Source of the DNA: Psilocybe azurescens
Lineage: Eukaryota > Basidiomycota > Agaricomycetes > Agaricales > Agrocybaceae
Direction of reading: 5' to 3'
DNA length: 64,000 nt
Assembly: GCA_023853785.1 (NCBI GenBank)
Contig: JAJIRX010000008.1
Location: 124,001 to 188,000, forward strand
Part shown: piece after piece, positions 53,848-55,442 of the stretch
Numbering within the stretch: the stretch's first letter is position 1
Layout of the letters: the number at the start of each line of letters is the position of its first letter
Made by a program: the position numbers and the translations under genes
Notes under the pieces: model-generated
The model's input: the letters and a program-made list of their open reading frames with translations, nothing else
What the model was told of the DNA's origin: nothing
Database searches by the model: none

Positions 53848-55442
53848 ATGCTTGAAGCCAAACTCCAAGAAGCCGGCACCCTCAAAAAGCTGCTCGATGG
53901 TAACATTCCCTCCTTCCCCCTCCTGTCCCTGAACGAACGCGTGTAGACTGACTGTTTTCTTTCTTTTCCTCCCCCGTCGCGTGCAGCCATCAAAGAGCTT
54001 GTCACGGACGCCAACTTCGAGTGCAACGAAGAAGGCATTGTCTTGCAAGCCATGGATAACTCGCACGTCGCCCTGGTGTCCGTCAAGTTCGGCGCGCCGG
54101 GGTTCACGCGTTACCGCTGCGACAGGCCCATGCCGCTGGGCGTGAACTTGACCTCGCTCACCAAGGTGCTCAGGTGCGCGAAGGACGACGATATATGCAC
54201 ACTGAAGGCCGCGGACGAAGCGGACGTGCTGAATCTGGTGTATGAAGCGAAGAGTGCGTTTTTTCTGCATTTTTCGCGTTCATGTGGCATGGGCGCGACG
54301 CGTCCTCTCTTTTCTTTCTTGCTCCTTCTCCTTTTCTCCTTTTGCTGGTGGACGCGACGCGTGCTTTATTTTCTTTGTCTTTTTCTCCCCTTCTTCCTTC
54401 CCCTTCCCTCCTCCCTGACCCATCCATCTAACCCCTCCCTCCCTCGCAGACTCGGACCGCATCGCCGAATACGACATGAAGCTCATGGACATCGACGCCG
54501 ACACCCTCACCATCCCCGAGACCGAATACGACGCCCGCGTCACCCTCCCGTCCGCCGAGTTCACGCGCATCGTGCGCGACCTCTCCCAGCTCGGCGAGAG
54601 CGTGCGCATCGAGGTCTCCAAGGAGGGCGTGCGGTTCGCGAGCGACGGCGAGGCCGCGAACGGGAGCGTGCTGCTAAGGCAGAGCGATGGGGGCCATGTG
54701 AGCGGGGGCACGATTAAGCCGAAGGTGGAGGAGGGCGCGGAGGGGTCGGGCGAGGCGGACGAGGAGGCTAAGGAGGATGATGAAGACGAGGAGGGCGGCG
54801 GGAAAGCGAAGAAGACGAAGAAACCCAAGATCAAGAAGGAAAAGGCGGACGAGGACATCGAGATGGTCGAGGACGATGACGATGAGGACGAAGAGTCATT
54901 CAAGCCCAAGGCGGACGACGACGAAGACGGCGAGGACGAGAAAGAGGACGACGAAGACGAAGACGATGAGGATGGGGATAGCAAGAAGCGGAAGAAAAAG
55001 GTGCGTTGTGTTCCGTCTTCTTGCGGTATCACGCCGAATTAATACCCCCCTTTTCCTTCTCACAGGCAAACGGCTCCAAACCCTCCAAAAAAGCCAAAAC
55101 TTCCCCCAAAAAAATCTTCCAAGGGCAAATCGAAAGCCAAGTCCTCAGCTGAAGACGACGACGACGACAGCGTCCCCGCGGGCGTCGTCATCGAGATGAA
55201 CCAACACGTCTCGCTCACCTTCTCCCTCAAATACCTCGTCAACTTTTCCAAGAGCGCGAGTTTGAGCGGCAAGGTGCAGTTGTTGATGAGCAATGATGTG
55301 CCGTTGTTGGTGGGTTTTCTTTGTTTGGCTTTTTGGCTTTTCGCGACGTTACTGATGTGCGTTTCTGTTTCTGCAGGTCGCATACGACTTCACCCAGGGA
55401 TACATCCGGTATTACCTCGCGCCCAAGATCGGCGACGACTAG
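53848..55442 (+). CDS. PCNA, DNA sliding clamp, with a long charged insertion
   Basis: Trimeric clamp that tethers DNA polymerases and repair factors in the nucleus. Exons: 53848-53899, 53987-54253, 54450-55000, 55066-55309, 55377-55442; all introns GT-AG. Landmarks: MLEAKLQEAGTLKKLLDAIK start, RYRCDRPMPLGVNLTSL, DRIAEYDMKLMDIDAD (interdomain loop that binds PIP boxes), FTRIVRDLSQLGESVRIEV, VVIEMNQHVSLTFSLKYL and the C-terminal IRYYLAPKIGDD. Between residues 182 and about 330 sits an insert of about 145 residues rich in E, D and K that ordinary PCNA (about 260 aa) lacks; a shorter charged insert is, as I recall, reported for the mushroom Coprinopsis. Odd: after the intron at 55001-55065 the frame needs one base less (A7 run at 55110-55116) to reach the last 75 residues, or an alternative acceptor at AAAAAAG (55092). 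Full length would be about 392 aa. Confidence 0.9.

What the first reader, a model, noticed from the sequence alone, without database searches (positions are those of the whole stretch)
54660..55185. PCNA with a lysine- and acid-rich insertion of about 145 residues
The clamp fold is otherwise conventional, but after SVLLRQSDGG about 145 E/D/K-rich residues are inserted before VVIEMNQHVSL, where other PCNAs have a few residues. I recall a shorter charged insertion in Coprinopsis PCNA with a variant lacking it; here the insert is longer and contains KKPKIKKEKADEDIEMVEDD and a KKRKKK patch resembling a nuclear signal. It would project from the ring and could act as a regulated partner-binding arm.
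Basis: partly seen in the sequence, partly recalled or inferred. Interest (0 to 1): 0.75.

Follow-up and report, generated by a model that had tools for sequence, protein, structure and literature searches.

The report
Mushroom PCNA arm; PCNA copied thirtyfold
The charged insert in this mushroom's DNA sliding clamp is real but is a standard, floppy, motif-bearing arm of nearly all mushroom-class clamps examined; the surprise is that this genome carries about thirty copies of the clamp gene, nearly all of them visibly damaged.

Summary
The insert is real: 146 residues (54680-55000 plus 55066-55183), cut by a 65-nt intron. With standard splice sites the coding sequence is 1180 nt, one over a multiple of three; the excess lies in a homopolymer stretch and is probably an assembly error (not proven).

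It is not unusual. Of 174 top-listed relatives, the named ones Agaricomycetes, 167 have 92-182 residues there (median 126); named Tremellomycetes 66-76; most other PCNAs about 11. The arm is predicted disordered and keeps [VI]K[KRE]E (164 of 167), DxEM (157) and a bipartite basic patch (165). I read it as a class-wide arm for nuclear import and, less surely, SUMO attachment near K164.

Copies keep introns, so they arose at DNA level. All 29 secondary copies show defects; 25 have lesions beyond 1-2-nt indels, and some small indels may be assembly errors. Two database proteins of P. cyanescens group with copies, so the copies are not peculiar to this assembly. The cause of the amplification is unknown.

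The parts
53848..53899 (+). PCNA exon 1 (MLEAKLQEAGTLKKLLD)
53987..54253 (+). PCNA exon 2; PF00705 match E 4.9e-35
54450..55000 (+). PCNA exon 3; PF02747 match E 1.9e-17 in its first part; first part of the insert from 54680
54680..55183 (+). charged insert, residues 184-329, in two pieces 54680-55000 and 55066-55183
54830..54865 (+). IKKEKADEDIEM: conserved [VI]K[KRE]E-acidic and DxEM motifs, possible SUMO site
   Evidence: function inferred
54983..55000 (+). KKRKKK, first half of the conserved bipartite basic patch; second half (KKAK) at 55087-55098
   Evidence: function inferred
55001..55065 (+). intron inside the insert
55087..55114 (+). homopolymer stretch (A6, C5, A7) in which the one-nucleotide frame excess lies
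55066..55309 (+). PCNA exon 4; PF02747 match E 9.5e-13
55377..55442 (+). PCNA exon 5 with stop codon
49465..56218 (.). segment around PCNA that recurs in the copies; 20 of 28 fetched copies leave the window sequence at 56214-56219; the left limit is uncertain and reaches about 47067 in C934, C919 and C406
58615..59565 (+). second, truncated PCNA copy in the window (exons 1-3 in part, stops, no exons 4-5)

Best explanation
The window holds the best-preserved PCNA gene of Psilocybe cyanescens or a close relative. Shown: its insert is the counterpart of a roughly 90-180-residue arm in nearly all Agaricomycete PCNAs examined, with a shorter form in Tremellomycetes, placed two strands after K164; in the Coprinopsis relative the arm is predicted disordered. 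Shown: the arm varies in length but keeps three short motifs, [VI]K[KRE]E followed by acidic residues, DxEM, and a bipartite basic patch. Inferred: the basic patch helps carry the clamp into the nucleus, and the KxE-acidic motif is an additional SUMO (or reader) site near K164, so the arm is a flexible platform for modification and partners while the ring works as usual. Shown separately: the gene with its neighbourhood has been copied at DNA level, giving 30 PCNA loci in this genome; the other 29 all show defects, 25 of them beyond 1-2-nt indels. Inferred: these are mostly passengers of dispersed, unstable segments.
For: Insert length in 284 of 284 proteins: 167 of 174 agaricomycete-search hits have 92-182 residues, 103 of 110 further hits have 4-19. 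Motifs in the 167 against within-sequence shuffles: [VI]K[KRE]E 164 (mean 18.4), DxEM 157 (5.6), bipartite basic 165 (1.7); psiKxE, DxEM and KKRK in that order in 132. Model of C. cinerea PCNA: confident core, residues 191-299 mean pLDDT about 42 and no secondary structure; core matches solved PCNAs with TM 0.92-0.97 by target length in the 50 listed. K164 invariant in 24 and in 60 aligned PCNAs. K164 as SUMO and ubiquitin site at the back of the ring, and sumoylation in Coprinus: PMC4030836, passages read. Copies; controls with one locus each.
Against: No expression, modification or localisation data. Motif conservation among related sequences does not prove function, and the simple order test holds in 132 of 167 only. 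7 of the 174 gene models lack the insert, one of them from P. cyanescens itself (P0080), so removal as an intron in some transcripts is not excluded. The window reading frame needs one nucleotide disregarded. Low copy-to-window dN/dS (median 0.19, 22 copies) and the assembly's indel errors leave room for live copies.
Confidence: 0.55

Rival explanations
1. The insert is a tolerated low-complexity expansion of an acidic loop; composition drifts and the motifs have no function.
For: Length varies from 92 to 182 residues among 167 proteins and acidic runs come and go between copies; no structure predicted; other PCNAs have a short loop of about 11 residues there.
Against: [VI]K[KRE]E, DxEM and the bipartite patch are kept in 164, 157 and 165 of 167, far above composition shuffles; invariant K, E and KK columns in 24 aligned proteins.
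Confidence: 0.25
2. The insert is an intron-like stretch, spliced out of some or all transcripts, so the clamp has no arm or an optional one.
For: P0080 matches the window over all its 245 residues but lacks the insert; 6 further models of the 174 lack it; a paper title speaks of 'alternative truncation' of Coprinus PCNA (Hamada et al. 2002, seen only as a reference).
Against: The conserved motifs need translation; 167 of 174 models keep the insert; the AG that the P0080 model would need is absent from the window, though present in most copies aligned.
Confidence: 0.15
3. The PCNA copies are cargo of one transposable element with defined ends, such as a gene-capturing Helitron.
For: Dispersed, intron-retaining copies; 20 of 28 fetched copies leave the window sequence at the same place, 56214-56219.
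Against: Those copies go on matching one another beyond that point, for 0.1 to 3.1 kb as far as fetched, and stop at varied places; the other 8 end elsewhere. ORFs of 75 aa or more from one right flank (L030) gave no Pfam family; the left flanks of copies were not scanned. Neighbouring segments are dispersed without a PCNA match too. Longer flanks could not be fetched.
Confidence: 0.2

Closest known systems
PCNA of Coprinopsis cinerea (P0019, 368 aa; Hamada et al. 2002 known here by title only)
   Same: Same insert site, same order of acidic, IKKEKVDEDVDM and KKRKKK...KKAK parts
   Different: Insert 123 against 147 residues
PCNA of Tremellomycetes (P0251, P0267, P0269, P0280)
   Same: Insert at the same site with KPDxDEEGEEE-type acid and KKRK...KKxK parts
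   Different: 66-76 residues; no [VI]K[KRE]E...DxEM part
Solved PCNAs of ascomycetes, animals and plants (for example 5tup, 7o1f, 1axc)
   Same: Same clamp fold and sequence
   Different: No insert; the phmmer match is in two stretches around the insert
Pseudogene families of housekeeping genes (recalled)
   Same: One well-preserved gene and many damaged copies
   Different: Here the copies keep introns and neighbouring DNA, so they are not processed retrocopies

Membership tests
Eukaryotic PCNA (PF00705, PF02747) | Both clamp domains above the curated cut-offs | tested here: met
   Window exons: PF00705 125.6 bits (cut-off 20.3); PF02747 69.2 and 53.9 bits (cut-off 23)
Eukaryotic PCNA (PF00705, PF02747) | Continuous reading frame | tested here: inconclusive
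   1180 nt = 3n+1 with canonical splice sites; excess in a homopolymer; 8 other splice pairs close the frame
Agaricomycete-type PCNA with charged arm | Charged insert between the strand ending SVLL(R/K) and (V/I)EMNQ | tested here: met
   146 residues; 167 of 174 relatives 92-182
Agaricomycete-type PCNA with charged arm | [VI]K[KRE]E, DxEM and bipartite basic patch | tested here: met
   IKKE, DIEM and KKRKKKANGSKPSKKAK in the window
SUMO target with acidic-dependent consensus site | psiKxE followed by acidic residues | tested here: met
   IKKEKADED in the window; pattern in 150 of 167 inserts against a shuffled mean of 27.5; the consensus itself is recalled
SUMO target with acidic-dependent consensus site | Sumoylation at that lysine in cells | not testable with these tools
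   needs protein work
Processed retrocopies (retropseudogenes) | Introns missing | tested here: not met
   Copies keep exons apart with introns
Transposable element carrying PCNA | Shared termini, target-site duplications, transposition protein | tested here: inconclusive
   Varied ends, no Pfam hit in the one right flank scanned; long flanks not available

The most novel reading that the evidence does not exclude
Several of the 30 PCNA loci are live paralogues, so this mushroom builds mixed clamps from subunits whose arms differ in length and motif content. Four copies (L023, L024, L035, L037) show only 1-2-nt indels in the core exons, of a kind that this assembly seems to produce in error (insert region not scored), and 21 of 22 scored copies have dN/dS of 0.10-0.30 against the window gene.
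Probability: 0.12. Interest if true: 0.75.

Novelty: new member of a known kind. Interest (0 to 1): 0.42.

Why it matters
A whole class of fungi appears to have added a conserved, possibly modifiable arm close to the K164 switch of one of the most conserved proteins known; this can be tested directly in Coprinopsis cinerea. The roughly thirtyfold dispersal of an essential replication gene, against one locus for each of two control families, raises the question of what keeps the well-preserved copy from being overwritten by its damaged relatives. It also warns that automated PCNA models from such genomes (insert-less, or taken from damaged copies) can mislead.

Tried and rejected
(a) That the insert is peculiar to this fungus: rejected. 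(b) That all copies are long-dead pseudogenes: weakened. dN/dS to the window gene is 0.10-0.56 (median 0.19, 22 copies), though part of that constraint belongs to the window's own branch; the two closest of 14 scored pairs have too many indels (L022/L039 12 substitutions and 26 indels; L030/L033 12 and 8), while the other 12 pairs have 0.14-0.59 indels per substitution, which is less telling; and the P. cyanescens protein P0122 reads on where its nearest copy L040 has frame changes and a stop. (c) Methylation or RIP-like decay: C>T/G>A at CpG is no higher than elsewhere (median 0.111 against 0.104, 21 copies). (d) Telomere association: no TTAGGGx4 in the assembly, so not testable. (e) A first structure run with 24 aligned sequences gave a poor model (mean pLDDT 52.7); the second with 60 was used. 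(f) Literature: nine searches, read as listings, showed no paper on the distribution of the insert or on PCNA copies in Psilocybe; some searches were loose, most subscription journals are not held, and Hamada et al. 2002 was seen only as a title in a reference list. (g) Insert measures by regular expression (50 of 120; 203 of 284) were replaced by an alignment-based one (284 of 284). (h) The script flagged 27 of 29 copies with robust lesions; for L023 and L024 I dropped the only flag (start codon) because one search shows their ATG (MIQAKI...), which gives 25 of 29. (i) Rows left out: dN/dS used 22 of 29 copies (not L017, L022, L026, L033, L039, L044 and the second window copy); and the tree used 21 (L043 also left out). 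(j) The protein lists were capped: the best 120 of 1246, 1064 and 4740 hits, so fractions hold for listed hits only.

Full report
Observation. The PCNA gene lies on the + strand with five exons (53848-53899, 53987-54253, 54450-55000, 55066-55309, 55377-55442). The insert runs from Q184 (54680) to the residue before VVIEMNQ (55183) and is 146 residues long by the alignment measure. It is cut by an intron, 55001-55065, whose GT and AG are kept in 23 of 29 other copies. The exons sum to 1180 nt, one more than a multiple of three; the excess lies in the homopolymer stretch 55087-55114, where other copies vary in run length. Eight donor/acceptor pairs close the frame; the one with the same donor and an acceptor 28 nt downstream looks best but removes the conserved NGSKPSKKAK part. 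I think an assembly indel most likely; the reads would decide.

Organism. P0080, named in its source Psilocybe cyanescens CVT25_014671, equals the window protein over all its 245 residues (189 N-terminal, 56 C-terminal) and lacks the insert. The window is therefore from P. cyanescens or a close relative. P0080 lies on a 13-kb contig and the window on one of 199 kb, so the assemblies differ. PMC8220353 (passages read) mentions a short-read Illumina assembly of P. cyanescens by Reynolds et al.; that CVT25 is its locus tag is recalled. The missing insert in P0080 is best explained by a predicted intron from CAT|gtgagc to an AG before CACGTC (inference); the window has no AG there, most aligned copies do.

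How ordinary is the insert? Three searches listed 284 different proteins (the best 120 of 1246, 1064 and 4740 hits), all measured. Hits P0001-P0174 came from queries with the window gene and with one copy; those with names are Agaricomycetes as far as I know them, some are unnamed metagenome proteins. Of these 174, 167 have 92-182 residues at the place (median 126) and 7 have 0-14 (P0080, P0121, P0122, P0130, P0160, P0163, P0172). Three are longer than the window's, one of them another P. cyanescens protein (P0049). Of its 110 new hits, 103 have 4-19 residues and 7 have 66-112: named Tremellomycetes 66-76 (P0251, P0267, P0269, P0280), unnamed P0252 (69) and P0238 (82), and Rhizoctonia solani P0227 (112). 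Punctularia (P0266) has 19. So the arm is common to nearly all listed Agaricomycetes and has a shorter relative in Tremellomycetes, which keeps the acidic KPDxDEEGEEE and KKRK...KKxK parts but lacks [VI]K[KRE]E...DxEM.

Anatomy of the arm. In the 167 inserts, [VI]K[KRE]E occurs in 164 (shuffled mean 18.4), psiKxE in 167 (50.3), psiKxE followed after 1-6 residues by two acidic ones in 150 (27.5), DxEM in 157 (5.6), [FY]xP-like in 122 (18.0), KK[RK]KK in 152 (6.9), the bipartite basic pattern in 165 (1.7); psiKxE, DxEM and KKRK stand in that order in 132. Shuffles keep composition but not ancestry, so this shows conservation on a background of changing length, not function. In 24 aligned agaricomycete PCNAs a K and an E of VKKE and two K of KKRK are invariant. 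AlphaFold2 on the Coprinopsis protein with 60 aligned sequences gives a confident core and no structure for residues 191-299 (pLDDT about 42); the core matches solved PCNAs. The arm follows strand 177-182; K164 sits between strands 157-162 and 167-172 and is invariant in both alignments. If these strands are consecutive antiparallel hairpins, the arm leaves at the same edge as K164 (inference). PMC4030836 (passages read) states that K164 of yeast PCNA takes SUMO and ubiquitin and lies at the back of the ring, that SUMO-PCNA recruits Srs2, and that a Coprinus recombinase is sumoylated. The mechanism I favour, an import signal plus an extra SUMO or reader site near K164, is inference.

Copies. 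The genome (70.4 Mb, 937 contigs) gave 39 matches to PF00705 and 44 to PF02747. I grouped them by hand into 30 loci, two in the window, and fetched the other 28. Some may be allelic leftovers: L030/L033 are 99.4% and L022/L039 99.1% alike over 4-6 kb. Controls: thymidylate synthase, one locus; ribonucleotide reductase small subunit, one locus with two adjacent matches; a bacterial ligase family, none, as expected. Copies keep introns and neighbouring DNA. Of 28 fetched copies 20 leave the window sequence at 56214-56219 but go on matching one another for 0.1 to 3.1 kb more, as far as fetched. Neighbouring segments are dispersed too, also without a PCNA match (only the 40 best candidates were scored in each). 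The right-flank ORFs of copy L030 gave no Pfam family, and some window ORFs gave only matches below the curated cut-offs. There is no CpG decay.

Are the copies dead? All 29 have at least one frame-changing difference from the window gene. The script found lesions beyond 1-2-nt indels in 27 of 29; two of these (start codon in L023 and L024) are contradicted, leaving 25. Pairwise dN/dS against the window gene is 0.10-0.56 (median 0.19, 22 copies) at dS 0.33-0.58; since the window branch shows almost no protein change in the tree, the copies' own ratio is higher, perhaps double. Near copy-copy pairs (42 with dS under 0.12) give 0.71. The simplest account is a constrained ancestor copy, then spread and loss of constraint. 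In the tree (21 copies, window gene, 25 database proteins) all copies group with the window gene and P0080 (local support 0.98); P0122 and P0049 from the CVT25 set fall next to L040 (0.99) and L019 (0.95). P0122 reads on where L040 has frame changes and a stop, so some defects in this assembly are errors or strain differences.

Verdict. The amplification of the PCNA gene is the unexpected part, and its cause is open.

Noticed in passing
whole genome G000; L017-L044: About 30 PCNA loci, mostly damaged, intron-bearing, dispersed with neighbouring DNA; one locus each for two control families.
   Followed up: partly
58615-61546: A truncated second PCNA copy ends at 59565, exactly where a segment (59566-61546) begins that is 94% identical to a stretch beside copy L027.
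   Followed up: partly
30582-32836 and 61745-64000: Inverted 2.26-kb repeat, 96% identical.
   Followed up: no
47131-49456: Dispersed segment with matches at dozens of places in the genome, mostly 70-90% identical; looks by eye like a membrane-protein gene, no Pfam hit in two ORFs tried.
   Followed up: partly
L022, L026, L039: Three copies share an interruption of about 3.2 kb in PCNA exon 2.
   Followed up: no
database proteins P0121, P0130, P0160, P0163, P0172: Agaricomycete PCNA models without the insert (10-14 residues at the place); may be annotation by false intron or true loss.
   Followed up: no
15106-15750 (-): ORF that by eye resembles the RNase H part of a gypsy-type retrotransposon.
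   Followed up: no
G000: No run of four TTAGGG units in the assembly.
   Followed up: no
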